Below are positions 34,636 through 61,934 of a stretch of 64,000 nt of DNA, piece after piece. The notes below the pieces were generated by a model. That model saw nothing but the letters and a program-made list of their open reading frames with translations. It had not been told where the DNA came from and did no database searches. Origin of the DNA: Nocardioides cavernae (GTDB lineage: Bacteria; Actinomycetota; Actinomycetes; Propionibacteriales; Nocardioidaceae); the NCBI RefSeq assembly GCF_013410035.1, contig NZ_JACCBW010000005.1, positions 62,001 to 126,000 of the forward strand. The letters are read 5' to 3'. Numbering within the stretch: the stretch's first letter is position 1; the number at the start of each line of letters is the position of its first letter. The position numbers and the translations under genes were made by a program.

Positions 34636-34861
34636 GATCCACCGCCAGATGCTCCTGCAGCCACGCGCGAACAGTCGCCGGGTCGTAGCGGAGATGCCGC
34701 CCGACGCGATACGCGTCTGGGCCACAGCCCTTGTGTCGCCACTGGTAGAGCGTGGCGACCGGGATGCCGAGGAACTCGGCCACCTCGTCGGCGGAGAGAA
34801 GTCGCTCCATGTTCTGCCGCGCCCTGGGGACGCCGCCCTTCGCGTTAGAGACCTGGGACAT
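34622..34861 (-). CDS. xis: Excisionase-like helix-turn-helix protein (MerR/Xis type)
   Basis: 79 residues. LLSADEVAEFLGIPVATLYQ followed by WRHKGCGPDAYRVGRHLRYD and AWLQEH is the winged helix of HTH_17/excisionase-family proteins. Such proteins bend attachment-site DNA and bias the integrase to excision. AAGGGAG lies before the ATG at 34861; a start at 34810 would lose 17 residues outside the domain. Overlaps at both ends with neighbouring genes show tight coupling to the integrase. Confidence 0.9.
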   Translation of the reverse strand: MSQVSNAKGGVPRARQNMERLLSADEVAEFLGIPVATLYQWRHKGCGPDAYRVGRHLRYDPATVRAWLQEHLAVDRGVG

Positions 34862-40399: not shown

Positions 40400-40857
40400 G
40401 CCGGCGCCTCGAACGGGGTGACTGTCCGTGAGGTCATCCCGAGGAGCACGAGTCCGCCGCGGGTTGCGGCGAGCAGCGCGGGAGGGAGGTTGACCGACGC
40501 GTTGCCTTCGGCATCGGCGTTCTGACGTACGACGACGTACGCCAGCGCGACCTCCTCGCCGGGCTGAAACCCGGCACCAGCGAGCGCAGGCGGTGGCGGA
40601 GTGGGTGGCTGCGCCGCGGCGGCTGGTGCCGGCGTCGGGGGAGTCGCAACGTCGGTGAACGTCGAGCCGTCGGCCTCGCGTACCTCGACGCGCACAGGCG
40701 CGCCGAGGTCTGAAGTGACCTCGTCGATGACGGCCCGAAGGTCGCCGCGGGTTCTGTCCTGTTCGGAATCGCGCGGGACACCATCAACGTCGACCGCGAG
40801 CACGCCCTCGGCGTCGATGGCGACGTGAACGACGCTCAGCACGACGGGGATCTTCAT
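40396..40857 (-). CDS. Element protein of unknown function with a proline-rich middle
   Basis: 153 residues. N-terminal alpha/beta part (MKIPVVLSVVHVAIDAEGVL, LRAVIDEVTSDLGAPVRVEV), an Ala/Pro linker (about 75-90), and a C-terminal beta-rich part with GEEVALAYVVVRQNADAEGN and LLAATRGGLVLLGMTSRTV. Overlaps of 4 bp at both ends tie it to the ArdC-like and VirD4-like genes, so it probably belongs to the transfer apparatus. The family is found beside coupling proteins in such elements, but I cannot name its role. Confidence 0.7.
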   Translation of the reverse strand: MKIPVVLSVVHVAIDAEGVLAVDVDGVPRDSEQDRTRGDLRAVIDEVTSDLGAPVRVEVREADGSTFTDVATPPTPAPAAAAQPPTPPPPALAGAGFQPGEEVALAYVVVRQNADAEGNASVNLPPALLAATRGGLVLLGMTSRTVTPFEAPA

Positions 40858-41933
40858 AGCCCGAGCACCGCCCCATCACGGCGTGCAGTGGTGCTGACAG
40901 CAGTTGTCCCAGTGCGGTGGCCGAGGGCTTCTCGGTCGAGCCTAGGCGGGTTGCCGTCGCCGACCTGCTGGGTGTCGACCTTGTCGAGGACGCCGAGCGC
41001 GGTCGCGCGGACAAGTTCGGCGGCTGCCTGGACGACCTCGACCGGGCTCTCGCCGGGGACACTCGCTGCCCAGGTCGAAACGTACGGCACCGTGTAGGAG
41101 GAGGTGTCGAGCCCGTGTGCGGCACCGACCATGAGCGCGACGGATTCGGCTTCCACCTCGGCGATCCCACGGTGCAAGGTCGCGTCGGCGGCGGACTCGG
41201 TCGACAGGGCGCTCTCAGATGGCGCGTGGAGAAGAACATGGCCGAGCTCGTGGGCGAGCGTCTTCACCTGGGCCGCCTCGTCCATGTCCACGCGGACCGA
41301 GACCTCGCGGGAGAGGAAGTCAGTCAGCCCGTTGGCACCGCCGATCGCCGCCGCCGAGGAGACCAGACGGAGCTCGAAGCCGGCGGCCGTGATCTGGTCG
41401 GCGAGCCCGTCCCAGAGTCCAGCCGGGGCCTCACCCTGGAGTAAGGATGGGCGGGGGAGTTCGGGCACAGGGTCGCCTGTGGTCTGGGAGATGTCCCAGA
41501 CGTAGGTCGGCTTGACCCCGATCATTCGGGTGCGGGCGTACTCGCCGGACATCGGCTTCTCGTTGCGCGCCAAGCGTCGCCAGGAGTTCGGGTCGTCGGG
41601 CGTGAACGAGGCGAACCGGCCGGTGACTGGTGCGAGGATGCCGTAGCCGTGCTGACCCTTCGAGACGCTGCGGCCGAGCGAGAGCCACTGGTGGAAGCCG
41701 GCGACGTACGTCGGCGTCGGCTCGGGCACCCTGCCCTCCTTGTACGCCGCGAAGTGCTGCGCCGCGATCAGCATCGAGTTCCCGAAGCTGCGCCCGCGGA
41801 ACTGTGCGGCGAAGGTCAGGGCGCGCTTCCAGTCCTCGCCGGTCACCAGCGCAGCGACGGACTCGGACAACTGCTCCTGGAGCGCTTCGAGCTTCGCTTC
41901 GCGGGCCGCTCGACCGCGAACCTGAGTGGTCAT
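40854..41933 (-). CDS. ArdC-like antirestriction protein with zinc-metallopeptidase domain
   Basis: 359 residues. The N-terminal ArdC-type single-strand DNA-binding part is seen in LQEQLSESVAALVTGEDWKR, FRGRSFGNSMLIAAQ and WLSLGRSVSKGQHGYGILAP. The C-terminal part has the zinc site HELGH (228-232) in VKTLAHELGHVLLHAPSE, with a distal Glu in IAEVEAESVALMV. ArdC-like proteins protect incoming plasmid DNA from host restriction during entry. The ATG at 41933 overlaps the VirB4 gene's stop (ATGA); the longer frame to 42032 is inside VirB4. Confidence 0.88.
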   Translation of the reverse strand: MTTQVRGRAAREAKLEALQEQLSESVAALVTGEDWKRALTFAAQFRGRSFGNSMLIAAQHFAAYKEGRVPEPTPTYVAGFHQWLSLGRSVSKGQHGYGILAPVTGRFASFTPDDPNSWRRLARNEKPMSGEYARTRMIGVKPTYVWDISQTTGDPVPELPRPSLLQGEAPAGLWDGLADQITAAGFELRLVSSAAAIGGANGLTDFLSREVSVRVDMDEAAQVKTLAHELGHVLLHAPSESALSTESAADATLHRGIAEVEAESVALMVGAAHGLDTSSYTVPYVSTWAASVPGESPVEVVQAAAELVRATALGVLDKVDTQQVGDGNPPRLDREALGHRTGTTAVSTTARRDGAVLGL

Positions 41934-43423
41934 GACGCTGTTCCTGTCATGCGTCCGGTGGTGTCGAAGAGCTCGAGTTCGGCGGGATGCATCTGGTGCT
42001 GGACGACGAAAGAGCGGTTCTTGATCCGCCACAGTCCTTGGCCGGTGCCGAGCGTGGGGATCAGTGACTGCTCGGTGCCAGTGAGCCCCAGTGCCGCCGA
42101 CGCTGCGCCGAGCTGGTCAGCTTCCTGGCGATAGACGATGCGGGTCTCGGCGTTGGCGAGGAGCGACGAGGCGAGAGCGCGCATGGCGGAGCCGGAGTCG
42201 CCGACATTGTCGAGGTCGGTGAGCTTGTGGAAGATCAGCATGTTCGCGATCCCGTAGTGCCGCGCGAGGCGCCAGTGGGCGTCCATCCGGCGCAGCAGCG
42301 CCGGGTGCGACATCAGGCGCCAGGCCTCGTCGTACACGACCCAGCGCTGGCCACCGTTCGGGTCGAGCAACGCCGATTCCATCCACGCCGACGCGCAGGT
42401 CATCAGGACGGATATGAGGGTGGCGTTCTCGGTGACGCGAGACAGATCGAGGGAGATCATCGGCAGACTCGGGTCGAACGCGACAGTCGAGGGCCCGTCG
42501 AACAGTCCCGCGAGGTCGCCCGCGACGAGGCGCCGAAGTGCGTGACCGACCAGTCGTCCATCCTCCGTGAGGCGGCCGTCGGGGTCGTCCGCCGGGCCCG
42601 GGGCGAGGAGCCTGTCGACGACCATCGGGAGGACCGGTACGTCGGCTCCGCGGACGGTGCGGTCGATGGCGATGTCGACGGCCGTGTGCTCGAGCGGGGT
42701 GAGCCGGCGTTCGAGCACGGTCTCCGCCAGGGCACCGACGAGGTCACGGCGACGAGATGCGACCTGGCTGGCCCATTGGGCATCGTCGTACCCGGACGGA
42801 CGGTGGCCCTCGTCGAGCGGGTTCAGACGGTTGGCCATGCCATGTCCCAGCGCGATGGCGCGACCGCCGACGGCTTCGGCGACGGCGGTGTGCTCGCCCT
42901 TCGGGTCACCGGGGACGTAGACACGGCGGCCGAAGGGGATCGACCTCGTGTAGAGGCTCTTGGCGAGACAGGACTTGCCGGAACCGACGATCCCGGCGAG
43001 CACGAGGTTCGGTGCGGTAATGAGCCCGCGTGCGTAGAGAATCCAGGGGTCGTAGACGAAAGAACTCCCGGAGTAGAGGTCCTGGCCGACGAAAACGCCT
43101 TCGCTGCCGAGGCCGCCTTCGGCGAGGAACGGGTACGCGCCCGCCAGGGTCGCCGAGGTGTCCTGGTGGCGTGGCACTCGGAATCGTCCGGGAGTCCGCA
43201 GCGTGGCGGGACCGTGTTCGCCGGCGCGGGGGAGGGTCACGGTCGCCCGCTTCTCGGTGGACAGTTCTTCGGCCTTGCGCTTGGCTTCCGCGCGCCGGGC
43301 TTCGCGATCGGCGGACAGGAGTTCTCGCGCCGCGGCCTTGCGGAGCCTGCGATCGTGCCGCCGTTCTCGTCCCGGTGAGACGAGCACGGCGGAGTGGAGG
43401 CGCCCGTCCTGCCAGCCGGTCAC
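41930..43423 (-). CDS. VirB4-like conjugation ATPase
   Basis: 497 residues from a GTG that overlaps the previous stop (GTGA). After a charged N-terminal helix (LRKAAARELLSADREARRAE) comes the ATPase domain: Walker A GIVGSGKS (144-151), RRVYVPGDPKGEHTAVAEAV, Walker B QRWVVYDEAWRLM, and IFHKLTDLDNVGDSGSAMRA. This is the family of large ATPases that drive the type IV channel. It is short on the N-terminal side compared with classical VirB4; in these elements the SCO6880-type protein encoded about 8 kb upstream is thought to provide a partner part. The cargo block now separates the two. Confidence 0.9.
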   Translation of the reverse strand: MTGWQDGRLHSAVLVSPGRERRHDRRLRKAAARELLSADREARRAEAKRKAEELSTEKRATVTLPRAGEHGPATLRTPGRFRVPRHQDTSATLAGAYPFLAEGGLGSEGVFVGQDLYSGSSFVYDPWILYARGLITAPNLVLAGIVGSGKSCLAKSLYTRSIPFGRRVYVPGDPKGEHTAVAEAVGGRAIALGHGMANRLNPLDEGHRPSGYDDAQWASQVASRRRDLVGALAETVLERRLTPLEHTAVDIAIDRTVRGADVPVLPMVVDRLLAPGPADDPDGRLTEDGRLVGHALRRLVAGDLAGLFDGPSTVAFDPSLPMISLDLSRVTENATLISVLMTCASAWMESALLDPNGGQRWVVYDEAWRLMSHPALLRRMDAHWRLARHYGIANMLIFHKLTDLDNVGDSGSAMRALASSLLANAETRIVYRQEADQLGAASAALGLTGTEQSLIPTLGTGQGLWRIKNRSFVVQHQMHPAELELFDTTGRMTGTAS

Positions 43424-43827
43424 AGCGACATCCCTGGCTGGTGCGTCGTCCGCTGAACCGGAGCGAACGACGGGTAGTCGCGGATGTCGTAGGCGATCGT
43501 TGCCTCGATCTCGTGTGCCCGATCTACGCATTCGGCGATCTGGTGGATCATCTCGGCGGCGCGATGAAGCTCCCAGGACTCTCGGTACGACGCTGCCCGC
43601 CCGGCGTTGGCATCGCCGTTCATCCACGCCTGCTTGCGAGTCGGCCCGTCGTGGAACTCGCCGAGCTGGTGCAGTGACTGGCTCAGCGATGCGAGAGCGG
43701 AGCTGATGGAACCCAGAACCGCGTAGATCGCGGTCGGATCGTCGATCGTGCGCGTCGCGTGAGCAAGCCCGCGGACTGCTTCCCGGAGTTCGTCGGCGTC
43801 GGCGACCGGGTCGTTGAAGGTAGGCAT
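43420..43827 (-). CDS. Helical element protein of unknown function
   Basis: 135 residues; GAGGAG precedes the ATG. It is nearly all helix (DADELREAVRGLAHATRTID, IYAVLGSISSALASLSQSLH, ELHRAAEMIHQIAECVDRAH), with the size and heptad pattern of a small helical bundle similar in style to ESX/WXG-type or scaffold proteins, though no WXG is present. It is coupled to VirB4 by GTGA and so likely acts in the transfer machinery. A longer frame to 43986 would overlap the opposite-strand zinc-ribbon gene and is not used. Confidence 0.7.
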   Translation of the reverse strand: MPTFNDPVADADELREAVRGLAHATRTIDDPTAIYAVLGSISSALASLSQSLHQLGEFHDGPTRKQAWMNGDANAGRAASYRESWELHRAAEMIHQIAECVDRAHEIEATIAYDIRDYPSFAPVQRTTHQPGMSL

Positions 43828-43923
43828 CGGTGGCTCCTCGGTCGATGGCTTCATCGATGAGGTGCACCGGGCGCTCCGCCGTGTCGCCGGGAGAAGGGTC
43901 GGCGACCGACCTAGCCTGTGGTC

Positions 43924-44046
43924 GTGGCCGACCTGACGGAGCCTTGCCCGAACTGCGACACGCTGATGCGCTGGGAGACCTCTCACGAGCGCTGTGACGG
44001 CTGCGGTTACATCAGGCCCTGCTGCGAGGGCGCTCCCTGCAGTTGA
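43924..44046 (+). CDS. 40-residue zinc-ribbon protein
   Basis: A GTG frame gives VADLTEPCPNCDTLMRWETS, then CDGCGYIRPCCEGAPCS and a stop. CPNC and CDGC are two zinc-knuckle pairs spaced as in zinc ribbons, with further Cys at the end. It is the only + strand gene in this part of the element and is divergent from the helical protein gene (start 43827). Such tiny ribbons are often DNA-binding or regulatory. Clear Cys pattern; start less certain because no strong ribosome-binding site is seen. Confidence 0.6.
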   Translation: MADLTEPCPNCDTLMRWETSHERCDGCGYIRPCCEGAPCS

Positions 44047-44052
44047 TCCGGC

Positions 44053-44217
44053 CTACTCGTCGGCGGCGTCGCCGATATCCCGGCGGCGGACACGGCGGCG
44101 CTTGCCGGTCTTGCGAAGCACCGGCCAAGGATGGCGGACTGCACGGCCGTGGCGGCGGTTCTTGTGGGGCTTACAGAGCTGGCAGCCCTTGTGCTGCCGG
44201 TGAGGCGAGTGCGCCAT
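44053..44217 (-). CDS. 54-residue basic Cys-containing protein
   Basis: Reads MAHSPHRQHKGCQLCKPHKN, then a strongly basic tail (LRKTGKRRRVRRRDIGDAAD). The GCQLCKPHK motif recurs in small actinobacterial proteins as I recall; the function is not known to me. It probably binds nucleic acid. It is convergent with the zinc-ribbon gene, stops 6 bp apart. The 112 bp before the terminator of the cargo operon (44218-44329) show nothing else. Confidence 0.6.
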   Translation of the reverse strand: MAHSPHRQHKGCQLCKPHKNRRHGRAVRHPWPVLRKTGKRRRVRRRDIGDAADE

Positions 44218-44329
44218 CGTGACGACTCCGATCCGTGAACAACACCCGCCACGGAGGGCGGGGTTGGTGCGGAATCGGGGCCATGGAAGGAAGGCTACGC
44301 CGCACGCCCGACACGTTCCGGGGAACAGA

Positions 44330-44365
44330 AGACCCCGCAGGCGTCTCGGGTCACCTGCGGGGTCT
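44330..44365 (-). terminator. Terminator of the kinase-helicase cargo operon
   Basis: AGACCCCGCAGG pairs perfectly over 12 bp with CCTGCGGGGTCT around a 12-base loop. On the minus strand it is followed by TCTGTTCC. It lies about 95 bp after the stop of the operon's last gene, so it closes the cargo operon and isolates it from the transfer genes to the left. Confidence 0.75.
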
Positions 44366-44459
44366 GGGCAGAATCATGGAGCAGGTTGGCTGGCTCTGTC
44401 CCGGGAATTCGGAATCTCCGCGCTCGGATCCGTCCGGGGTGGCCGGACTACGGCTCTCC

Positions 44460-46274
44460 TTAGATTTCGAAGTCGTCGTGTGTCGCAACCCGGGCGAGCT
44501 CGATCTGGCCGGTTGGAAGCACCCAGTAGTGGATGCGTCGAGCGGAGGGAGTGTTGACCTGGAGACTTGCCCGCCACGCGATGGCTCCGTCATCCCGGAC
44601 GCGCACCGGGTCGTCGCCTCCCGGACCCGCGCGTAGATGGTGGACCTCGCGGCTGGGGAGCTGCGGTGCCAGTCCTGTGACGATCTCGAAGGCGACGTCG
44701 GCCACCTTCTCTGGCTTGATTCCCTGGAGTCGTTCCAGCGACTCGAGGAATCGTGGGCCAATGATGAAGTCGGCGAGCGGGCGGTTTCGCTGTTCGCTGG
44801 GAAGGGTGCGAGTAGCCCACTGGGTGAGTACGAGGTACCGGAACTCCTGCTCGGGGTCGGCGAATCGAGGGCCGTTTCCAGCCGGGCTCTCGGACTTGCC
44901 GGTGCTGGTTGCCTTCCGGAGCCGCGCACGCGTGGACTTCAGGTCGTTCTCTGCCTTGTTCGCCCGCCGCTCGGCCTGGTCCAGCAGGTATCGGAGCTGC
45001 TCGCGCTCGTCGGACCCCGCGAGCACCTGGGTCTGGAGGTTGACGACCTCGCGCTTGAGCCCGGCAATCTCGGCAGTCAGCCCGTCGACCTTGAGCAGCA
45101 GGCCTCGGGTCGATTCGGTCGGCCGGTGAGGGGCAGGAGACGCCGATGCCGGCCGCTGGCTCGGGCCGGGGCGGCTCCTGTCGAGCATGGCCGGGCTCGG
45201 CCGCGGCGTCGCGGCTGCCGGCGGCTGCGTGGGCGACGGCGCTTCGATCACCTGCACAGGTGTCGGCGCCGGCGGCGGCATCGGCAAGGACGTGACAGCC
45301 TTAGGCTCGTCGACCTCGGAGTGGTCCGGCTCTTCGCTGAGCCACGGCGGCCCGCCCGGTAGCAGCGAGGGAGCCGACACGATCGGCTCGTCATCATCGA
45401 CATCGTGCAGGGCGAGTGCCCAATTCGGCCCTGTCGCCGTTACCCGGGCAGGAATGACCTCGCCGACGGTCATGAGCGTGCGGAGGTCGTCCTCAGGGTT
45501 CGCGGTGACGTCGGCACGAAGGACCGTGACGACAACCGGGGGTGTGGTGGTCTGGGGATAGAGGACCAGCTCCGCCTTCCCGTTGCGCACCTTCGCGACC
45601 TTGCTGAGGACGACGTCACCGACGGCGTACGCCGCGAGGGCCTCACCATGCCGCCGGAGGCTCTGTCTGATGTCGACCCGGTTGCTGTCGGCGTCGTACC
45701 AGCCCTCGATCCGCAGACCGGCTTCCACGATGCGATCGATCGGGACGTCATCGACCGCAAGTTCTTCTGCGATCGCGGCGGGGAACAGATTCCCGACGTC
45801 CACGAGTGCTCGGCCGGCGACGACCATCTTCACCGTGGTATCGACCTTGCGGAGTTCACGGGTGGGGACTGACTGGAGGAGCCCGGCCGCTGCGGCCATC
45901 CGGAGCATGTCGGAGATGAGCTTCTGTGTGGCGCGGTCTCCGTCGTCTTCGTTGAAGGCGAATCGGAGCGGCGACTTTGAGAGGTCAGAGGCCCACTCAT
46001 GTCCGACGGGGTAGACGCGGCCGGCGCCACCGTAGACCTGGGTTCCCGCCGCCATCCGATCGGAGAAGTCCCAGGTGAACGGCCCGGTGGGCATCAGATA
46101 GACGTCGGCGAGGCTCCCGGCCTCACGTGCGACCTCCTCGACGTCGATCCACGGATCTGTCCGACCGGCCGGAATCGTTACGACGACAACGGGCCGCTTG
46201 CGAGAGTTGCCGTTAAGGAGATTCGCGAGTGCAGCGGCGGCGAGGTCGTCATCAACCCGGTGGACGGCGGACAT
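44460..46274 (-). CDS. Third gene of the Mokosh-like operon: coiled-coil protein with a possible OB/S1-like segment
   Basis: 604 residues from an ATG 4 bp after the previous stop. Residues 1-190 form an alpha/beta domain with VYLMPTGPFTWDFSDRM and then YGGAGRVYPVGHEW (81-94) that I cannot assign. Residues 215-295 look like one or two OB/S1-type barrels (YAVGDVVLSKVAKVRNGKAE; GEVIPARVTATGPNWALAL). A Pro-rich linker (320-390) leads to a coiled coil (391-455: VDGLTAEIAGLKREVVNLQT, DQAERRANKAENDLKSTRAR) and a C-terminal domain (about 475-604). It may sense or hold RNA or DNA for the helicase and nuclease encoded upstream. No catalytic motif is evident. Confidence 0.75.
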   Translation of the reverse strand: MSAVHRVDDDLAAAALANLLNGNSRKRPVVVVTIPAGRTDPWIDVEEVAREAGSLADVYLMPTGPFTWDFSDRMAAGTQVYGGAGRVYPVGHEWASDLSKSPLRFAFNEDDGDRATQKLISDMLRMAAAAGLLQSVPTRELRKVDTTVKMVVAGRALVDVGNLFPAAIAEELAVDDVPIDRIVEAGLRIEGWYDADSNRVDIRQSLRRHGEALAAYAVGDVVLSKVAKVRNGKAELVLYPQTTTPPVVVTVLRADVTANPEDDLRTLMTVGEVIPARVTATGPNWALALHDVDDDEPIVSAPSLLPGGPPWLSEEPDHSEVDEPKAVTSLPMPPPAPTPVQVIEAPSPTQPPAAATPRPSPAMLDRSRPGPSQRPASASPAPHRPTESTRGLLLKVDGLTAEIAGLKREVVNLQTQVLAGSDEREQLRYLLDQAERRANKAENDLKSTRARLRKATSTGKSESPAGNGPRFADPEQEFRYLVLTQWATRTLPSEQRNRPLADFIIGPRFLESLERLQGIKPEKVADVAFEIVTGLAPQLPSREVHHLRAGPGGDDPVRVRDDGAIAWRASLQVNTPSARRIHYWVLPTGQIELARVATHDDFEI

Positions 46275-46278
46275 GCGG

Positions 46279-48000
46279 CTACTGCGGGACGGCGCGGAGA
46301 GAGAGCGAGACACGCTCACGGTCAAGGTCGACATCCTGGACGAGAACCGTGACCGCGTCGCCGACGGACACCACGTCGGATGGGTGGTCTACGCGGCGAT
46401 CAGCAAGTTGGGAGATGTGAACCAGTCCGTCAACCTCGCCCAGATCGACGAATGCGCCGAAGTTCGTAATGGTCTTGACCGTGCCCGAGACGACCTCGCC
46501 GACGCTCAAGGACTTCAGTGCCTCCCGCTTCCTTTCCGCTCGCGACTGCCGTGGCGGCGACATGGCGTCAGGCGACGACGGCGGGGGCCCCGTAGTTGAA
46601 GACGCCGGATTGACGTAGGTGCGGTACCTCTCGGGCAGGGTCCCCAAGATCTCCAGAGCGAGGCCACAGTTCTCACGCATGTACCGGTCGTAGGCACGGT
46701 CCGCCAACACCTGATCGCTGACGAGGTCGCCCTCCTCCTGGCGGAACTTCCGGTTCGAGTCCCCCCGGAACGACAACCAGTTGAAACTCGTCTTCACGTA
46801 GTAACTATCGCTCACGAGGATCTTCGCGTGAGTGTCGTCAACGCGCACGACGGCGAGCCGCGAGGACCGCCCAGCTGCGTCGTGCAGCGACTGGAGGGCG
46901 TGGCGATCTGTCTTCGCGTTGTCGCCGAAACCCCAGAAGATCGTGACATCTGCACTTCGCGCTAGTTGCTCGAGGCGTCCAACAAACTGCCGGGTCACTA
47001 CGGAGCCTGTGATCCAGGGGCTGATGATGAGAAGGCGACGCTTCGGTCCCGTTAGTGCGTCATCCAGCCACGCGGGGTGGTCGGCCATGGAGAGCCACCG
47101 GATGGCGGTGCGATCTAGTCGGTCATCGTCCGCCTGCGGCGCGGTGTCGGCGTCATTCAGCGCGGTTTGGATCGCGATCACTTCGTCGCGCGAGAGTCGG
47201 GGACCGGGCTCGTCCGCAGGCTCGTAACTGACCTCTTCGGTCGAGCTGATGCCGAGCTTGTCGACTGCGTCGACGTCTTCGAGTGCAGCCAGATGCTCCT
47301 CTCTCCACTGGCCGTCGACCTCGATTCCCAGGCGAACTGAGCTCGAGTCAATGTCCCTGTAGACGAGCAAGATGGCGTCGCGATAGAAGTTCCGGCTCTC
47401 CGTTACACCGGTGACCCCGAGGATCTTGAAGTCGGAACGGGCGTACCCATCGATTGCGTCAGAGATGGCAGTGACTGTGAGGTCAGCACGCTCTACGTCG
47501 ACGCCGCCTTTCTGCGGCAGAACGATGAATTGGGACTTCCTGGCGGTACCGGAGCGCACGAGCGAGTTTCTGCGCCAGCTGGTGACGCCGCCTGTGAGCC
47601 GGTCGTATACCACCTGGATGGTCGTCGGCTTCGGGCGTCGCACGCGCGCGTCACGTGCAGCCTCAAGGCCATTGGGGAGCAGGCTGAGGACTCGCGGCTG
47701 CCCCGGGGCAGGGGGGCGGTAGTCGACGAACTCCGACCGGAGTAGGCCCGCGACCGTAGTTGCGGTGTCTTCTGGGGTGAGGCCCATGAAGAGCTCGAGA
47801 TCCTCGACGGTGTAGATGCCGTTCAGCAGGGCAGCGAGCGCGTACTTCTGTGCCTTGTCCAGGTCCTCGACTTCCTCAGCGAGGACATCGACCGTGAGTA
47901 CCGACGCCGGGATGTAGCAGGGCTCCGCCGCCAACAGGGTGTGTCCCGGTAGCGCGTGCGCATGACGCCGTGCGGCGTCGGCATAGATGTCGCGGCTCAC
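46279..48000 (-). CDS. mkoB: MkoB-like phospholipase-D nuclease with C-terminal S1 domain
   Basis: 573 residues; its ATG overlaps the kinase-helicase stop (ATGA). Order: winged-helix-like part (about 45-100, LDKAQKYALAALLNGIYTVE); middle; PLD-type domain (about 315-455) with one HKD-like motif, DDTHAKILVSDSYYVKTSFN (His391, Lys393), after LLIISPWITGSVVTRQFV; S1 RNA-binding domain at 500-572 (GEVVSGTVKTITNFGAFVDL, GLVHISQLA). With a single motif the active site would need a dimer, as in other one-motif PLD nucleases. In type I Mokosh systems a PLD protein (MkoB) partners with a kinase-helicase. The S1 fusion suggests an RNA target. Confidence 0.85.
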   Translation of the reverse strand: MSRDIYADAARRHAHALPGHTLLAAEPCYIPASVLTVDVLAEEVEDLDKAQKYALAALLNGIYTVEDLELFMGLTPEDTATTVAGLLRSEFVDYRPPAPGQPRVLSLLPNGLEAARDARVRRPKPTTIQVVYDRLTGGVTSWRRNSLVRSGTARKSQFIVLPQKGGVDVERADLTVTAISDAIDGYARSDFKILGVTGVTESRNFYRDAILLVYRDIDSSSVRLGIEVDGQWREEHLAALEDVDAVDKLGISSTEEVSYEPADEPGPRLSRDEVIAIQTALNDADTAPQADDDRLDRTAIRWLSMADHPAWLDDALTGPKRRLLIISPWITGSVVTRQFVGRLEQLARSADVTIFWGFGDNAKTDRHALQSLHDAAGRSSRLAVVRVDDTHAKILVSDSYYVKTSFNWLSFRGDSNRKFRQEEGDLVSDQVLADRAYDRYMRENCGLALEILGTLPERYRTYVNPASSTTGPPPSSPDAMSPPRQSRAERKREALKSLSVGEVVSGTVKTITNFGAFVDLGEVDGLVHISQLADRRVDHPSDVVSVGDAVTVLVQDVDLDRERVSLSLRAVPQ

Positions 48001-51000
48001 AGGTATTCGATCCTTCCGATCCCCGGCCGACCAATATGGGTCAGCGCCCTACCTAGTGGACCTTCTTTACTGCCGGCGAACTCCGAGTCGCCGACGATCC
48101 AGAGAACGTCTCTCGCACGTGACAAAGCGACGTTGATCCGCCCGGAGTAGCGCTCGTCCAAGAAGCCGAAGTCGCCGGTGAGATTGCTTCGCGTCACTGA
48201 GAAGATGACGACGTCTGCTTCACGACCTTGAACCGCGTCAACCGTGTTCACGGTGACGCTGAGTCCGGTCAGGTTGAGGCGTCGAATTGCGCGCTCGATC
48301 TCCAGACACTGGGCTCGATATCCGGTGAGAACAAGCACTGATACTGGTCCGCCCTTGATGCGACGCATGCCGCCCTGCTGCGTGCTGCCCTCGAGCCGCG
48401 CGAGTAGCTTTGCGATCTCGAGTGCCTCGGTCTTGTTCGAGGAACTTTCGCCGCGGGCCCGCTTGGGCTCTTCTCCACGGTCGGCTCGGCGGCTGGTCGA
48501 GAACCAGACGAGGCGGTCGTTGTCCTCAACCGACTCAGGAAGCAGGGCAGGGTATGGCTCGTGGGTGAGCTCACCGTCATAGAACGTGTCGGAGATCAGG
48601 CGCCCGATCGGGACGGCCATCCGATGCTGCGTGGTAAGTCGCGTTCGGCACGCTTCAGGCGACTCGGCCAGGAGGATGTCGAACAGCGAGGAGTTGTGGA
48701 AAAGCTTGTCCAGCTCGAACTCGTCGACGAGGTCCTTGTGCTCGAAGACCTCCTCCGCCATCGGGGGGAGCTGTTGTGGATCACCGACCATGACCCACCG
48801 CTTGGAGCGCGTCATCGGAACCAATAGTTCGGACGCGGTGGCCCGTGATGCCTCGTCGATGATGCAGAGGTCAAACTGCATCTCTTGGACTTTCGCGTTC
48901 GACAGGAATCCCATGCAGGTGCCTGCAACGACCCGTTGCGTTGGCAGGAAGAGGGGCTCACTCGCCCCAGGGTCGGTCAGGCTGTTCAGCCAGTCGCCCT
49001 GAATCTGCAGGAGCTCTCGAATTCGTTGATGTCCCGGGCTCGTGCCCACCAGACGATCGATGAGTGAGGCGAGCTCCGAGTCAGTTGGTTCGGCGGAGAG
49101 CTCCTCGCCCAGTCGTCCGGCGGCCATTCGAACGGTTGCAGCCGCCTCCTCAGACCGCTCGGACGCGCGGTAGTAGTCCGCCAGCATCGTCGCGCGATCG
49201 TCCGGAAGATCCTCATTGTCTAGCCGGTCCGACGGCTCCAAGACCCCTAGGGCCTCTCGACGATCTGCAGCCTCCCGCAGAGCCGCCCGTGCCTCCTCGG
49301 CTCGAAGGGCGAGGGACACGGACTCGACTTCGATTCCTTCGCGCTCAGCGAGAACGCTCAAGCCGTTTTGCGCACGCTTGGCGATCTCGGCCGTCCAAGC
49401 ACTGAGCTTGTTTGCGAGCAGGAGGTGCGAAGCATCCGGGTCGACTTTGTCGTCGCGACTCGAGAGCCGGACGACGTCCGCGACACCGGAGTCGAACAGG
49501 CGTGTGACGGCGTTGTCGATCGCTACGTGCATCTGGCTGACCAACAGCACCTTGTCGCCTGGCCGGGCGCGCAGGTACTGGTTGATCAGTTCACAGATAA
49601 ATGACGTCTTTCCGGTTCCTGGTGGGCCTTCGACTAGATAGATGTCCTCTGAACCGAGCGCGTTGGCGACCGCGGCGATCTTGTCGTCGTCGAGGTCGGG
49701 CGTGATCGGCTCGAAGGCAACCGGATCAGGCGCCGTCGCGACCTCCGGGTCGAGGACGATCTCGCGAAGGTGTGGTCGTGCCGAGCTGCCCTCGCGGAGA
49801 GCAGCGAGGGCCGTCTTCTGCCGCTTTATGGCGGCTTGCGAGGGACGGCGATCACGCACGAGCACGCCGTGGCGTGGCATGTCCCGAGTGGTTTGGAGTG
49901 CGCGCACGACCAAGTCGGTGCCCGCCACATCGACGACGTTGACCGGAACGCCGCGAGCGGTTGGGTCGTCGTCAGGTCTGGCCACACGCTCTTGGTCCAG
50001 GACGGCAGGAGGCACAGGCGCCGGTGACTCGAGTTCGAACTCCATGCCGCTTCTACCGACGACCTCGTAGGAGATTGGCTCCTCGAGCCGCTTCTCGAGT
50101 TGCTCCTTCGCGTCGATGAGTTGCGACCAGCTATTTAGTCGCGCCTGCTTGAACCTTTCGCCGAAGCGGTCGCTGAAGTCCTGGACTGCCTTGCTGAGCA
50201 GGGTGCGCAGTTCCAGGGCTGCCTGAGCTGCTTGCTTGGGATTGGCAGGACGCTCGGCTGACCAGGCGAAGTCTCGAGCGTCGATCGGAACGGCATCCTC
50301 GTTGGCGCGAAACCGCTCAAGCGCTTCAAAGTCGGTTACTTTGGCCCACTTTGCCAGGAGCCGGTACTGGTCCGTGAAGACCATTCCAAGCTCCAAGCGG
50401 TCGCCGATGAGCCGAAAGCCCTCAGCGTTGTAGTACGACTTTCCGTCGGCGCCTGTCTCCAGGCGGGGGAGCACCACCGTCCCATCGCCGAGGAGTCCGG
50501 GAACGGCGGACTCGGGACGCCGATCAGGTGACTCCTCCTCAAGAGCACGCCGCGCCGTATTGGACAGCTCGAAGACGATGGTCTTCTGCTTCCGCCATCT
50601 GCTAAGTCGAGCCTCATGAATGGCCTGCAGTTCGACAAGCATCACCTGGCCGTCGGCAGGGCGCCTACTCGGCTCCGGATCGAGGCTACGAGACAGCAAA
50701 TCAAGTACATCCGGCGGGACGTCCGCCCCAGCCAGCGCCTTGGCGATGTCGGGGAAGTCTCGAATGGGCGAGTCGGTAACGCACTGAAGGAGCGTGGCTG
50801 CGAGCCCGTACACGTCGAATCGCGTCGATCCACGAGACGCGTGGTCTGGCGGCGCCCAAGGAGCGTTTGTGCTGCCGACGACCGTCGCATCTTGGGCGGC
50901 TGCGACCTGGTCTTTGATCTTGCTCAGGGCGAAATCTGTGAGGATCGGGGCGGTGCCATCCCAGAGCACGTTTGTTGGTTTGATGTCGCGATGCAGCACG

Positions 51001-51386
51001 GCCAGCGAGTGGGAATGCGCGAGGGCCGATGCGAGCGGGAGTGCGACAGCCTCGGCAAGGTCGTCCCAGCCCGGTGGCTCATCGAAGGTGCTCAACCAGG
51101 AGCTGAGCGTTTCGGGGACCCACTCCATGACGAGGTAGTAGGCGCCGATTCCGTCGTCGACCCCACTGTCGAGCAGCGCAGCGACATTCGGGTGGTTGAG
51201 CTTCCGGTTGGCCGCAGTCGAACGTTCGAAGTAGATGCGGTAGATGTCGTCAGCAGACGCTGGAAGTAGCTTGACCGCGACCATGCGGCCGCCCTGATGC
51301 AGGTCCGTTGCCTGGAAGACCTCGCCTTGTCCGCCGACCCGACGCGTGTTCGCGATCTCGGCATATCTGCCGGCAATGATCCGCAT
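47997..51386 (-). CDS. mkoA: MkoA-like Ser/Thr kinase fused to a UPF1-type helicase
   Basis: 1,129 residues. Kinase domain (about 1-275): VGGQGEV loop, AVK (Lys39), HRDIKPTN (132-139) and DFA (151-153) instead of DFG, which may lower or change activity. A linker region (about 275-560) follows, then a superfamily 1 helicase: Walker A GPPGTGKTS (Lys593), DEAS (844-847), VGDPQQLPPMAEE, TQHRMAVPIGRL, NTVDAVQGREADVVIFSVTR and RINVALSRARD. These are motifs I-VI of UPF1/COG1112 helicases. From published work on type I Mokosh, MkoA is such a kinase-helicase, paired with a PLD nuclease, and defends against phage. The ATG at 51386 is preferred; 51446 would add 20 residues. Confidence 0.9.
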   Translation of the reverse strand: MRIIAGRYAEIANTRRVGGQGEVFQATDLHQGGRMVAVKLLPASADDIYRIYFERSTAANRKLNHPNVAALLDSGVDDGIGAYYLVMEWVPETLSSWLSTFDEPPGWDDLAEAVALPLASALAHSHSLAVLHRDIKPTNVLWDGTAPILTDFALSKIKDQVAAAQDATVVGSTNAPWAPPDHASRGSTRFDVYGLAATLLQCVTDSPIRDFPDIAKALAGADVPPDVLDLLSRSLDPEPSRRPADGQVMLVELQAIHEARLSRWRKQKTIVFELSNTARRALEEESPDRRPESAVPGLLGDGTVVLPRLETGADGKSYYNAEGFRLIGDRLELGMVFTDQYRLLAKWAKVTDFEALERFRANEDAVPIDARDFAWSAERPANPKQAAQAALELRTLLSKAVQDFSDRFGERFKQARLNSWSQLIDAKEQLEKRLEEPISYEVVGRSGMEFELESPAPVPPAVLDQERVARPDDDPTARGVPVNVVDVAGTDLVVRALQTTRDMPRHGVLVRDRRPSQAAIKRQKTALAALREGSSARPHLREIVLDPEVATAPDPVAFEPITPDLDDDKIAAVANALGSEDIYLVEGPPGTGKTSFICELINQYLRARPGDKVLLVSQMHVAIDNAVTRLFDSGVADVVRLSSRDDKVDPDASHLLLANKLSAWTAEIAKRAQNGLSVLAEREGIEVESVSLALRAEEARAALREAADRREALGVLEPSDRLDNEDLPDDRATMLADYYRASERSEEAAATVRMAAGRLGEELSAEPTDSELASLIDRLVGTSPGHQRIRELLQIQGDWLNSLTDPGASEPLFLPTQRVVAGTCMGFLSNAKVQEMQFDLCIIDEASRATASELLVPMTRSKRWVMVGDPQQLPPMAEEVFEHKDLVDEFELDKLFHNSSLFDILLAESPEACRTRLTTQHRMAVPIGRLISDTFYDGELTHEPYPALLPESVEDNDRLVWFSTSRRADRGEEPKRARGESSSNKTEALEIAKLLARLEGSTQQGGMRRIKGGPVSVLVLTGYRAQCLEIERAIRRLNLTGLSVTVNTVDAVQGREADVVIFSVTRSNLTGDFGFLDERYSGRINVALSRARDVLWIVGDSEFAGSKEGPLGRALTHIGRPGIGRIEYL

Positions 51387-51476: not shown

Positions 51477-52925
51477 TCAAACCCGGCGGCAGAGTGGGAG
51501 CGCACTCGCCGCGAAGGACTGCGCCTGCTGTCCCCAGAGCCGGCGCGTCTCGCACGACGCTTGGATCGCCGCCTGCTCGATCGCCGCGACAGCGCGCTCG
51601 AGCTCGTCGGGGTCACCAGCGCTGACGGCGACGAACCCGGTCGCCCGCAGGACTCCGTGCCCGGCGGTGAGGTCGGCCTCCTGCTGGAGGACGTCCTGGT
51701 ACTCGGCGGTCTGCTGGGCGTCCTCGATCTGGCCGATCTTCTGGCGCTGGGCGGCGTCGGAGATGTACTCGGTCTTCTTCTTGCGGATGTCCCGAGCAGC
51801 GCGATCGGTGCGCATCGGCGTGTAGAGCAGTGTGAAGGTCCGCCGGATCCCCGAAGACAGCAGCAGCGGCGCGAGGAAGCCGGGGTACACGAGGGACCGC
51901 GGCCACTCGCTGATCCAGAGGACGCAGTGGTGCGCGGAGTCACTGCGCAAGGAGCCCCACGCTTCGTTGACCGCGACGGGCCCCGCGGTGGCGAGGTCCC
52001 CGCCTATGTCGCCCTGCCGCTCGAGTGCGCCCGCGACGGCGGGGTCGTACGCCGACCTGAGGATCAGCGCAAGGTCGCCGGGCGTGAGCCATTCGCCGGG
52101 GGAGAGGTCGGCGGATCGGAGGGCGGCGAGCATGGTCGCCATCTCCTGTCGGAGTACGGCGGCCGCCCCTCGCATGCCTCCGCCGGCAGCCCGGATCGCT
52201 CGTCCGGCCACCTTCATGTCGAGTGAGATCGAGACGGTCGATGCATGGCGCTCGCCTGCCGGACCAGCGCGGTCGACCAGTTCGCCGTACGTCGTCGACG
52301 CCCACGAGGCTGAGCGGTTGCCGTGCTGCTCCCACCAGTCCGCCAGGCCCTTGCCGGAGTCAGGGAGCGTCCGCTCCATCACCTGCACGGAGGCGATTCG
52401 CCCTGAGCGGCATGCCGTCGCGAGGACGCGGCCCCACGAGACGACTCGGCGTTCCTGCTCAGCTGGGTCGAGCAGCACAAACGCGGGGTGGGAGACACCG
52501 ATGATCGCGGTCAGGGTGGCGGCGTGCGGGTCGTGAACCATGACGGCGTCCGTCTCGGGGTCCACCCACTGACGCAGGCGCGCCGCGTCGCCGGGCAGGG
52601 CCAGCGTGCCGGCGGGGCGCGGCTTCACGATCCTTCGGCGGTACAGCAGTTGTCCGCCGGTGGATCGCCAGAGCCATCGCGCGCGGATCGGCGCCCACTC
52701 GATGAGCTTGCGCCCTCTGACACCAACGAACGCCAGCGCGACCAAGAACAGGATGATCGGGAACGTCATCACCACGGCGCCGACGTACAGACCGACGATC
52801 AACGTGCCCGACGCGAGGCTGGCCATCAGGAGTTGGGGCCCGGAGAGACCGAGCAGGACGCCGCGTCGGGTCAGGCGCGAGAACTTGACCGGGGTCAGCT
52901 CCGGTTCGCGGGTCGTCGTGGCCAC
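51477..52925 (-). CDS. SCO6880-family conjugation protein (PrgI-like membrane N-terminus)
   Basis: 482 residues from a GTG. Two membrane helices lie at about 28-70 (LLMASLASGTLIVGLYVGAV, IILFLVALAFVGV). Then comes a long soluble part with WVDPETDAVMVHDPHAATLT, DWWEQHGNRSASWASTTYGE and RTFTLLYTPMRTDRAARDIR, which are characteristic of the SCO6880 group. This family sits next to the VirB6-like and VirB4-like genes in actinobacterial elements and is considered a VirB3/VirB4-N-like channel component. Downstream the cargo operon starts 90 bp away. Confidence 0.85.
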   Translation of the reverse strand: MATTTREPELTPVKFSRLTRRGVLLGLSGPQLLMASLASGTLIVGLYVGAVVMTFPIILFLVALAFVGVRGRKLIEWAPIRARWLWRSTGGQLLYRRRIVKPRPAGTLALPGDAARLRQWVDPETDAVMVHDPHAATLTAIIGVSHPAFVLLDPAEQERRVVSWGRVLATACRSGRIASVQVMERTLPDSGKGLADWWEQHGNRSASWASTTYGELVDRAGPAGERHASTVSISLDMKVAGRAIRAAGGGMRGAAAVLRQEMATMLAALRSADLSPGEWLTPGDLALILRSAYDPAVAGALERQGDIGGDLATAGPVAVNEAWGSLRSDSAHHCVLWISEWPRSLVYPGFLAPLLLSSGIRRTFTLLYTPMRTDRAARDIRKKKTEYISDAAQRQKIGQIEDAQQTAEYQDVLQQEADLTAGHGVLRATGFVAVSAGDPDELERAVAAIEQAAIQASCETRRLWGQQAQSFAASALPLCRRV

Positions 52926-52931
52926 GGCCGG

Positions 52932-54224
52932 TCACTTCTTCCCAGCGGTGTCGACCAGCGTCGAGTCCGCGACTGGGGGTGGGACTGTCGAAGGAGCGGC
53001 GGACTCATGTGCCTGTGCCTGTCCGGTCGCCTGGGCAGCGACGAAGTTGCCAAGCCGAGGACCGGCCGCTGCCGCCTCCTTTGCGACCACGACTCCGGCG
53101 GCAGCTGCGCCGCCCGCGGCTGCGGTTCCTCCGGCGGCACCGCCGGATCCGGCGCTTCCGCCTTTAGCTCCAGTCGACGGTCCGCCGGCGGATGGTCCCG
53201 TGGCCCCGGGCGAGGTGCCGGAGGTCGTACCGCCGCCACCGTCTGCGCCGCCCGCGATCAGGACCTTGGCCGGCTCGCTGCCCGTGCGGCGAGAGAGCGG
53301 GATCGGCATCGGCCGGTTGAGCGAGGACTTGGCTTCCTGCTCGGCCGACATCGCGTGGTACATGTCGAAGCCCATGAAGGCGATGGCCTTGTAGGTCAGG
53401 TACGGCGCGAAGCCGGCCATCAGCATCAGTACGACGCCCGCCATCGGCTGGCTGACGGACTCGAGGTCGGCGTCGATCGGCGCCGAGACCTGGGCGGTGG
53501 CGAGCAGGAAGATCACCACGAGGACGACCTTCGAGAGGATCATCGCGATCACGAACGTCGCCCAGCGGCTCAGCCACGTCCGGGTGTGGTCCCAGCTGGC
53601 ACCTGCGAGCGCGATCGGTGCGAAGACAATCGCGATCAGAAGCAGGGCCTTGCGGATCAGCAGGCTGATCCACACGACCATCGCTCCGATGATGGCCAGG
53701 CTGGCGAGGAAGATCGTGATGATCGCTCCGGCGCCCGGAGCGCTGAGGTTGATGGCGCCGAGTCCTGCGGCGAGTACGGCGACCTTGTCGCCCATCTCGT
53801 TCATGTTGGTGCCGGCTGCGTTGACGATGCCGATGCAGAGCTGGTCCGTGATCTCGAGCGCGGTTGCGAGCAGAGCGAGCGCGACGAACGATCCCAGGAT
53901 CGACTTAGCCAGGCCGAGTGCGGCCCTGGAGAGAGCGGCTGGTTCGCGTCGGAGCATGCCGCCGATGACCTGGAGCATGAAGAAGCCGAGCATCACGAAG
54001 ACCCCGACGCCGAACATGATGTTGTAGACCTTCGTGTACTCGCCGCTGGTCACATCGACGTACGTCGTGGTGTCGATGACCTTCCAGACGGAGGTGAACA
54101 TCCACTCGGCCGCGCCGCCCATGCCCTGAGCGAGCCAGTCGAACGGCGCGGTGATCACCGCGCCAGCCGCGTCCCCGGCGGCGTTGCAGACCTCCTGGAT
54201 CACCGGTACGTCGCAGACACCCAT
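52932..54224 (-). CDS. VirB6/TrbL-like conjugation membrane protein
   Basis: 430 residues. About six membrane helices (70-95, 105-130, 145-170, 180-205, 215-245, 255-280), as in KVYNIMFGVGVFVMLGFFML, IITIFLASLAIIGAMVVWIS and FVIAMILSKVVLVVIFLLAT. SWDHTRTWLSRW is a conserved loop of the TrbL/VirB6-like group. The tail (about 310-430) is Gly/Ala/Ser-rich and low-complexity, probably extracytoplasmic or flexible. It forms part of the inner-membrane channel. The gene is 6 bp upstream of the SCO6880-type gene. Confidence 0.87.
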   Translation of the reverse strand: MGVCDVPVIQEVCNAAGDAAGAVITAPFDWLAQGMGGAAEWMFTSVWKVIDTTTYVDVTSGEYTKVYNIMFGVGVFVMLGFFMLQVIGGMLRREPAALSRAALGLAKSILGSFVALALLATALEITDQLCIGIVNAAGTNMNEMGDKVAVLAAGLGAINLSAPGAGAIITIFLASLAIIGAMVVWISLLIRKALLLIAIVFAPIALAGASWDHTRTWLSRWATFVIAMILSKVVLVVIFLLATAQVSAPIDADLESVSQPMAGVVLMLMAGFAPYLTYKAIAFMGFDMYHAMSAEQEAKSSLNRPMPIPLSRRTGSEPAKVLIAGGADGGGGTTSGTSPGATGPSAGGPSTGAKGGSAGSGGAAGGTAAAGGAAAAGVVVAKEAAAAGPRLGNFVAAQATGQAQAHESAAPSTVPPPVADSTLVDTAGKK

Positions 54225-54234
54225 GATCGATTCC

Positions 54235-54540
54235 TCAGACCTGCTGGCCGACGTTCCAGAAGAAGTTCACCAGTGTCACCGAGGCGCCGCAGACGATCGC
54301 GGCACCCAGGGCTACGAGAACGCCGAGCTTGCCACGACCGGCAAGGTGCGGGTTCGACGAGTTGGCCCCCAGCGCCCAAACGATCGCCGAGATGATCAGC
54401 GCGAGTACGGCGAGCACCAGGCCAACCGTCATGGAGGCTCCGACGATCTTCTTGAGCTGACCGATCCCGGGCAGGCCGTTGGAGTTCGGGTCGATCGAGA
54501 TGTCGAGGGGGAGCAGGAGTGCTGCTGTGAGTAGGTCCAT
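54235..54540 (-). CDS. Small two-span membrane protein of the transfer channel (DUF6112-like)
   Basis: 101 residues. Two membrane helices (about 35-58 VGLVLAVLALIISAIVWALG and 73-97 GVLVALGAAIVCGASVTLVN) with a short charged loop. The layout resembles VirB2-like pilins and the DUF6112 group seen in these operons. A second, related gene follows upstream (54573-54863), so the operon has a duplicated pair. The ATG at 54540 has GGAG before it. Confidence 0.8.
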   Translation of the reverse strand: MDLLTAALLLPLDISIDPNSNGLPGIGQLKKIVGASMTVGLVLAVLALIISAIVWALGANSSNPHLAGRGKLGVLVALGAAIVCGASVTLVNFFWNVGQQV

Positions 54541-54572
54541 CGGAGGCTCCTGACGTCGGACGGGCGGACGTC

Positions 54573-54863
54573 TTAGAGGTGCGGGCCGATGTCCAGCAGC
54601 CAGTTGGCCCAAGTGAGCGCGGCGCCCGTCAGCGCCGCTCCGCCGATCGCGACGAAGCAGCCAAGCTTCGCCTTCTGAGCGGTGTGCCAACTGCCCGAGC
54701 TCGAAGCAACGGCCCAGGTCGTGACCGAGATGACGAGCATCAGCACGGCGACGATCAGGCCGTAGGTGAGAAGGGCACCAACGATGGTGCGGAGGTTGCC
54801 AGCGCCGCCGACGGCACCGAAGTCAGGCCCAACCGTAGTTGTGATGACGTCGCGGCTGCTCAT
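54573..54863 (-). CDS. Small two-span membrane protein, paralogue of the neighbour
   Basis: 96 residues with the same plan: GALLTYGLIVAVLMLVISVT and GCFVAIGGAALTGAALTWAN as two membrane helices and a Lys-containing loop (HTAQKAKLG, compare AGRGKLG in the neighbour). The two are probably the pilin-like or channel subunits of the conjugation system. They sit immediately upstream of the VirB6-like gene. Confidence 0.8.
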   Translation of the reverse strand: MSSRDVITTTVGPDFGAVGGAGNLRTIVGALLTYGLIVAVLMLVISVTTWAVASSSGSWHTAQKAKLGCFVAIGGAALTGAALTWANWLLDIGPHL

Positions 54864-61596: not shown

Positions 61597-61934
61597 AGTC
61601 CCAGTCCTTCCTGGCTCACGGTGGGCGCTGCTCGGTGTGGTCCGGGGTGGCGGAGCGTTCGGGTCGTCGTGGCCGGCGTACGGCGCGCTCGTCGTACGAG
61701 CTCCGTCTGGAGATCGATCCCGCGGCCGACCATCGGGCTGAGGTAGGAGCCCAACTCAGTGGGGCGCACCCATGCGATCCGCTTCTGCATCTGCTCGCGT
61801 GCGGGCTGTTCGGGCCCGAGCAACGGATCACGGTGTCGTGCAAGCTCGCTGGCGGTGGGCTCGACACCCTCGGCGGGGCTCGGGCGCTCGGGCGGCCGAT
61901 AGCTGTGGCGGCGGTACTCGGCATGAGTGTTCAC
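61593..61934 (-). CDS. Small basic element protein of unknown function
   Basis: 113 residues, rich in Arg and Pro (RRHSYRPPERPSPAEGVEPT, LVRRARRTPATTTRTLR). A short ordered part is ARHRDPLLGPEQPAREQMQK then RIAWVRPTELGSY. ATGA overlaps at both ends place it firmly in the prim-pol operon. No family recognised. Confidence 0.6.
   Translation of the reverse strand: MNTHAEYRRHSYRPPERPSPAEGVEPTASELARHRDPLLGPEQPAREQMQKRIAWVRPTELGSYLSPMVGRGIDLQTELVRRARRTPATTTRTLRHPGPHRAAPTVSQEGLGL

What the first reader, a model, noticed from the sequence alone, without database searches (positions are those of the whole stretch)
44460..51386. Mokosh-like kinase-helicase/PLD system with an S1 domain and an extra third gene inside a conjugative element
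Three genes in one direction, joined by ATGA or a 4-bp gap, with their own terminator: kinase-UPF1 helicase fusion, PLD nuclease with S1 domain, and a coiled-coil protein with a possible OB/S1-like segment and an unassigned YGGAGRVYP-motif domain. Type I Mokosh (as published) has the kinase-helicase plus a PLD protein. The RNA-binding S1 domain and the third gene are not, to my knowledge, part of the described core. The kinase has DFA instead of DFG. The block splits the SCO6880-type gene from the VirB4 gene, so it is clearly cargo.
Basis: partly seen in the sequence, partly recalled or inferred. Interest (0 to 1): 0.88.

Follow-up and report, generated by a model that had tools for sequence, protein, structure and literature searches.

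The report
Mokosh defence pair beside unrelated gene
A mobile DNA element, probably in an actinobacterium, carries a two-gene anti-virus system of a known kind with an RNA-binding add-on that it shares with relatives on mycobacterial plasmids; the third gene beside it, which looked like a new component, is found elsewhere without the system and is most likely a separate passenger.

Summary
Genes 1 and 2 are type I Mokosh: PADLOC MkoA 2.5e-193, MkoB 1.4e-54. MkoB's S1 domain is real. S1 and the kinase's DFA motif occur together in one clade: the window plus Mycobacterium gallinarum and M. marinum plasmids, 3 of 13 loci compared. That is a modest variant of a known system. C belongs to an actinobacterial family partly matching PADLOC's HEC-07 (13 of 14 members); its function is unresolved. 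Side finding: 6 of 6 alphaproteobacterial loci read carry a PP2C phosphatase gene after MkoB.

The parts
47997..51386 (-). MkoA: serine/threonine kinase (HRD, DFA) fused to a UPF1/IGHMBP2-like SF1 helicase
   Evidence: PADLOC MkoA 2.5e-193; Pkinase, AAA_11, AAA_12; alignment with 5 homologues
46279..48000 (-). MkoB: PLD-type protein with one HxKx4D motif and a C-terminal S1 domain (residues 500-569)
   Evidence: PADLOC MkoB 1.4e-54; PF00575 6.4e-23; S1 shared with L016 and L017 among 13 loci
44460..46274 (-). Gene C: separate family; conserved N-terminal domain with YGGAGRVYP, Pro-rich linker, coiled coil, conserved C-terminal domain; part of the cargo block but not of Mokosh
   Evidence: homologues on 12 plasmid records, in L014, L015 and G001; none near MkoA/MkoB in the stretches held; partial HEC-07 match
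44330..44365 (-). hairpin after gene C, likely terminator
   Evidence: in the block shared with L014; not listed by the simple scan
51477..52925 (-). SCO6880-type conjugation gene, upstream edge of the cargo slot
   Evidence: 93% identical in L014; plasmid relatives annotated SCO6880 family
43420..43827 (-). 135-aa gene on the downstream side of the slot; kept in L014, partly recognisable in L022
   Evidence: no Pfam match
41930..43423 (-). VirB4-type ATPase (GTG start overlapping the previous gene)
   Evidence: 97% in L014; 32-79% in L019 and L022-L024; sequence

Best explanation
The block is two unrelated cargo modules side by side in a hot spot of an actinobacterial-type conjugative element. 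Module 1 is a type I Mokosh pair of an S1/DFA clade. Module 2 is gene C. Inferred working of module 1: the SF1 helicase of MkoA senses or engages abnormal (phage) RNA or RNA-DNA; its kinase domain regulates the response; MkoB's PLD domain cuts nucleic acid; MkoB's S1 domain, closest to a domain of ribosomal protein S1, gives MkoB its own grip on RNA and so steers cutting to transcripts. Shown: the genes, domains, motifs, clade, slot and modularity. Inferred: every biochemical step and the antiphage role here. Gene C is an independent gene of unknown activity, possibly a conflict gene because its N-terminal domain matches a segment of HEC-07.
For: PADLOC and Pfam hits. The same MkoA-MkoB-S1 pair without C on M. 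gallinarum and M. marinum plasmids. The S1/DFA loci form one group with 100/100 support in a 13-row MkoA tree. Slot swap in L014: SCO6880, TrbL, VirB4, VirD4 and C kept at 87-97% protein identity, MkoAB replaced by DO-GTPase2 (PF19993 8.4e-9) plus a 143-aa gene. The GTPase gene and its 143-aa neighbour without C in a Curtobacterium plasmid. A C homologue alone in another genome of the genus. Backbone relatives L022-L024 have neither MkoAB, C nor the GTPase pair between SCO6880 and VirB4.
Against: C sits 4 bp after MkoB and before a shared putative terminator, so it may be co-transcribed. C holds this slot in both elements, which could mean that it serves whatever lies upstream. Only nine genomes of the genus, the window's own included, could be searched, and the genome-contig search reaches close relatives only, so Mokosh-C pairs elsewhere are not excluded. 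The S1 of the window's MkoB is about as close to ribosomal S1 (60.7% to a Tsukamurella rpsA) as to the S1 of the M. gallinarum MkoB (60.8%), so a single origin of the fusion is not proved. L022 has about 0.9 kb of other sequence between its 135-aa-like gene and VirB4, so its slot is not plainly empty.
Confidence: 0.75

Rival explanations
1. C is a shared accessory protein: an adaptor or effector that works with whichever two-gene module occupies the slot upstream of it (Mokosh here, the double-GTPase pair in L014).
For: C is kept at 87% while the upstream module changes; gaps of 4 bp (window) and 10 bp (L014) to the upstream gene; homology between the two elements breaks at the end of SCO6880 and within the first ~18 codons of C.
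Against: Both modules occur elsewhere without C, and C occurs elsewhere without either. A retained neighbour in a hot spot gives the same picture without any joint function.
Confidence: 0.12
2. C is a lineage-specific third Mokosh gene of the S1/DFA clade.
For: Operon-like spacing in the window.
Against: The two S1/DFA loci read besides the window (L016, L017) lack C; L014 has C without Mokosh in the stretch held.
Confidence: 0.05
3. C is a backbone (transfer or maintenance) gene of this element family rather than cargo.
For: Present in both close elements; homologues sit on large actinobacterial plasmids; one of these, L012, also has a homologue (62.5%) of the window's 54-aa gene, about 6 kb from C.
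Against: Absent from backbone relatives L022-L024 in the stretches held; in the 12 plasmid stretches with a C homologue, tblastn with the window's SCO6880, TrbL, VirB4, VirD4, NlpC, ParB, primase and integrase found nothing; one homologue is chromosomal with none of these within about 14-16 kb.
Confidence: 0.08

Closest known systems
Mokosh type I (MkoA-MkoB)
   Same: kinase fused to SF1 helicase, followed by a PLD protein; strong PADLOC matches; gene overlap as in relatives
   Different: MkoB carries a C-terminal S1 domain and the kinase has DFA; a further gene follows that is not part of the system
MkoA-MkoB on Mycobacterium gallinarum pJCM6399 and M. marinum pRAW
   Same: 59-65% identical MkoA, DFA kinase, S1 on MkoB
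   Different: no gene C; pRAW MkoB has V in place of the PLD histidine
PADLOC HEC-07
   Same: residues 6-130 of C match positions 169-294 of model PDLC04161 (6e-14); 13 of 14 aligned C homologues match that model
   Different: only about 125 of 553 model positions covered; the rest of C did not match
Alphaproteobacterial Mokosh loci with PP2C
   Same: MkoA-MkoB gene order; PADLOC MkoA and MkoB models matched in the one locus scanned (L026)
   Different: third gene is a PP2C phosphatase; DYG in the four kinases printed; HxK motif not found by pattern and no S1 by blastp with the window's S1, apart from a 26-aa match at E 0.1 in L026

Membership tests
Mokosh type I | MkoA: kinase-SF1 helicase protein | tested here: met
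   PADLOC 2.5e-193 over residues 22-1126; HRD, DFA, GPPGTGKT, DEAS
Mokosh type I | MkoB: PLD protein encoded next to MkoA | tested here: met
   PADLOC 1.4e-54; HAKILVSD; 4-bp overlap. No Pfam PLD model reached E 1 for it
Mokosh type I | NERD domain (listed for Mokosh type I in a table of PMC10952713; whether it is defining is not clear) | tested here: inconclusive
   no NERD match in any of the three proteins at E 1, although the 1112-position MkoA model is matched nearly whole; passage seen
Mokosh type I | protection against phage | not testable with these tools
   needs an experiment
   0 of 12 other Mokosh loci read have C; 0 of 15 C homologues read have MkoA/B in the stretch held
PADLOC HEC-07 | full-length match to a HEC-07 model | tested here: not met
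   only positions 169-294 of 553 matched by the window protein
DO-GTPase conflict systems (PMC7159879), for the L014 module | GAP1 protein typically downstream of the GTPase | tested here: inconclusive
   the 143-aa downstream gene has no Pfam match and looks short for the three-domain GAP1 described in the passages read

The most novel reading that the evidence does not exclude
Gene C is a plug-in partner that docks different defence modules (Mokosh, double-GTPase) to a common output, so that an element can swap the sensor while keeping C. The S1/DFA clade would be a distinct Mokosh subtype whose nuclease is aimed at translated mRNA through a domain taken from ribosomal protein S1.
Probability: 0.1. 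Interest if true: 0.65.

Novelty: new variant of a known kind. Interest (0 to 1): 0.35.

Why it matters
A ribosomal-type S1 domain on the nuclease subunit is a testable hint that Mokosh acts on RNA; the passages I could read state this role but give no mechanism. The variation around the kinase (DFA together with S1; a PP2C phosphatase gene in Alphaproteobacteria) suggests, by inference, that phosphorylation is used and tuned. The corrected view of gene C keeps an unrelated gene from being annotated as a Mokosh subunit.

Tried and rejected
Rejected: third gene as a Mokosh component. Not supported: an OB/S1 segment in C. An idea of mine from the sequence, not supported: a RelE-like C-terminal domain in C. 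The C-terminal alignment had no Pfam match to such a family; 3 families at E 0.075-0.25, in 2, 1 and 1 of 14 members. Against solved structures it gave eight chains at E 0.58 to 7.4: seven rRNA N-glycosylase A chains over one stretch of 72 positions and one ribosomal protein; at that E-value I take them as chance and draw nothing from them. N-terminal domain: three chains, best E 0.28, taken as chance. The whole C alignment matched only coiled coils at best (keratin, E 0.0096). Pfam matches of the other members of A1 were mostly coiled-coil families, with PF05139 in 2 of 14 at best 0.0029; PHROGs gave three families in one member each, best 0.00087. C in phage records: none at E 1e-5; in viral contigs: 44 stretches matched a pattern, none encoded a relative. 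MkoB in viral contigs gave one locus, matching the S1 part only. Attachment sites: no exact repeat of 16 bases or more between about 31.3-33.6 kb and the window's last 4 kb plus the next 14 kb; no tRNA in the window or that stretch; the element's ends are not defined. HEC-07 literature: no paper in the library; Hma-embedded candidates only in passing. The original Mokosh paper is not held, so the definition of Mokosh rests on PADLOC models, on passages of PMC11291487 and PMC10952713 and on recall.

Rows and limits. C by tblastn on plasmids: 12 records, all 12 read; L012 and L013 have no annotation. L009's C is split between frames and was left out of alignments A1, A5 and A6; L013 was also left out of A6; the G001 homologue was found later and is in none. 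MkoA by tblastn on plasmids: 354 records, 30 listed; 12 of these 30 were read (L016-L020, L025-L027, L029-L032). The 18 not read: three M. marinum, one Streptomyces, five cyanobacterial and one A. tumefaciens record, and eight that match over 54-58% only. Of the alphaproteobacterial rows listed, 6 of 7 were read. PADLOC was run on MkoA and MkoB of L018 and L026 and on MkoB of L016 only; the other loci are called Mokosh by alignment or tblastn with the window's proteins and by gene order. With the window's MkoB, tblastn at 1e-5 found the MkoB of only 1 of the 6 alphaproteobacterial loci (L031). One search compared nothing because of a wrong file and was redone. In one search the query for the 135-aa gene was in a wrong frame; the right frame was used.

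Full report
Observation. One search gives three consecutive minus-strand ORFs. MkoA's start is best placed at 51386 by alignment with five homologues; MkoB starts with GTG at 48000 and overlaps MkoA by 4 bp; C starts at ATG 46274, 4 bp after MkoB. A hairpin with a 14-bp stem follows C; the simple terminator scan did not list it.

Mokosh pair. hmmscan against PADLOC gave MkoA 2.5e-193 and MkoB 1.4e-54. Pfam found a protein kinase and SF1 helicase domains in MkoA and an S1 domain at 500-569 of MkoB, but no PLD model in MkoB up to E 1. Helicase relatives of known structure include SMUBP-2 (IGHMBP2), DNA2, UPF1 and SEN1. PADLOC's MkoB model is 610 positions long and the window's best stretch ends at position 382, so these calls do not show whether the model includes any S1-like tail. 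A review table lists a NERD domain for Mokosh type I (PMC10952713, passage); none was found here.

S1 and DFA. Thirteen MkoA-MkoB loci were compared (window, L016-L020, L025-L027, L029-L032). S1 is found in 3 and DFA in the same 3; L018, L019, L020 and L027 have DFG. In the four alphaproteobacterial loci printed (L025, L026, L029, L030) the motif reads DYG; L031 and L032 were not printed, only found not to match the DFG/DFA pattern. The only other blastp match of the S1 domain was 26 residues of L026 at E 0.1. The three S1/DFA loci lie on one side of a branch with 100/100 support; 7 of 500 label shuffles cluster as well. Two further M. marinum records are annotated with S1 as well and a third is covered over the full length (not read). 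The S1 domain matches ribosomal protein S1 best, over residues that lie between about 175 and 290 of the models and chains, which I take from recall to be its third domain; it is 60.7% identical to a Tsukamurella rpsA, against 60.8% to the M. gallinarum MkoB S1. Ribosomal S1 is the likely source; a single fusion event is not shown. DFA keeps the Asp; whether the kinase is active is unknown.

Slot. Locus L014 (Nocardioides guangzhouensis) aligns with the window over 38703-44313, 44308-46220 and 51491-54823, and over two shorter stretches, at 89-91% nucleotide identity. Between 46220 and 51491 there is no match: the window has MkoAB and the first ~18 codons of C, L014 has a 451-aa DO-GTPase2 protein (PF19993, 8.4e-9) and a 143-aa protein without Pfam match. 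L014 has a further insert of about 1 kb after the hairpin. In the next relatives, L022 (Microbacterium plasmid, SCO6880 about 70%), L023 and L024 (Streptomyces), no MkoAB, C or GTPase pair lies between SCO6880 and VirB4. In L023 and L024 only one or two small genes lie there. L022 has a remnant like the 135-aa gene and about 0.9 kb of other sequence, and its genes look frame-disrupted. L019, an Arthrobacter conjugative plasmid, carries MkoAB shortly after its own T4SS genes, so Mokosh and conjugation genes have met elsewhere.

Gene C. tblastn found 12 plasmid records, all actinobacterial, no phage record, two loci in genome contigs and one further genome among nine of the genus, the window's own included. 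All 15 homologues outside the window were checked by tblastn for MkoA and MkoB within the stretch held (7 kb flanks for the plasmids, about 9 kb around the match for L014 and L015, about 14-16 kb for G001): 0 of 15. Conversely, 0 of the 12 other Mokosh loci read have C, and none of the 12 C records is among the 30 MkoA rows listed; 324 further records were not listed. The DO-GTPase2 gene and, directly after it, an unannotated stretch matching the 143-aa protein (45%) occur in a Curtobacterium plasmid without C. So the three modules separate. Against a clean separation from the element: the plasmid locus L012 holds, about 6 kb from its C, a homologue of the 54-aa gene that follows C in the window. 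The genome-contig search used exact peptide patterns and finds close relatives only, so more C homologues must be expected.

Architecture of C: the 14 aligned members share an N-terminal and a C-terminal domain, with a variable middle, linker and coiled coil; the N-terminal domain is weakly alike (18-22%) in L008, L010 and L011. Thirteen of 14 match the HEC-07 model PDLC04161. No Pfam, PHROG or solved-structure match is convincing. Structure prediction could not be completed.

Mechanism. A 2024 paper states that Mokosh degrades foreign viral transcripts and has domain homology to the piRNA pathway (PMC11291487, passages read). S1 on the nuclease subunit fits an RNA target. It does not prove it: S1 folds can bind other partners (recall).

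Side finding. All 6 alphaproteobacterial loci read (L025, L026, L029-L032; 6 of the 7 such rows listed) have a PP2C gene overlapping the end of MkoB, confirmed by Pfam. The MkoB identity was scanned in L026 only. These MkoB proteins showed no HxK motif by pattern. The six form one clade (100/100; 22 of 500 shuffles cluster as well), four of them close, so they count as few independent cases. One paper in the library holds both Mokosh and phosphatase, each once (listing only).

Novelty in print. Searches for Mokosh alone, or with helicase/PLD, kinase, S1, Mycobacterium or phosphatase, listed no paper whose title or abstract start concerns an S1-fused MkoB or a Mokosh phosphatase. They covered the open library only, the listings were capped, and most listed papers were not opened.

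Noticed in passing
L025 11870-12595, L026 11882-12664, L029 10945-11754, L030 10882-11667, L031 10849-11667, L032 10882-11667: PP2C phosphatase gene overlapping the end of MkoB in 6 of 6 alphaproteobacterial loci read; in 3 of 6 (L030-L032) a DUF3800 gene follows. A kinase-phosphatase pair inside a Mokosh operon.
   Followed up: partly
L017 9001-10854 (M. marinum pRAW): MkoB has V in place of the PLD histidine (VAKVLVSD), so the nuclease may be inactive although the S1 domain is kept.
   Followed up: no
window 54913-57729 and L014 1299-3743: A second variable slot between TrbL-type and NlpC/P60-type genes: a 938-aa leucine-rich-variant/HEAT repeat ORF in the window, a NERD-helicase-like protein with a cold-shock domain in L014.
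   Followed up: partly
L014 7207-8990 and L028 5010-6484: DO-GTPase2 protein plus a shared ~143-aa protein with no Pfam match, a possible two-gene conflict module; in L028 it lies beside a type ISP restriction enzyme.
   Followed up: partly
L014 10976-12007: About 1 kb inserted after the hairpin behind gene C, absent from the window.
   Followed up: no
L012 789-932 and window 44053-44217: A 54-aa protein next to C in the window has a 62.5% homologue about 6 kb from C on a Curtobacterium pusillum plasmid.
   Followed up: no
window 33478-34725 and 61931-62839: Tyrosine integrase and primase-polymerase genes of the element; no attachment repeats found, element ends undefined.
   Followed up: partly
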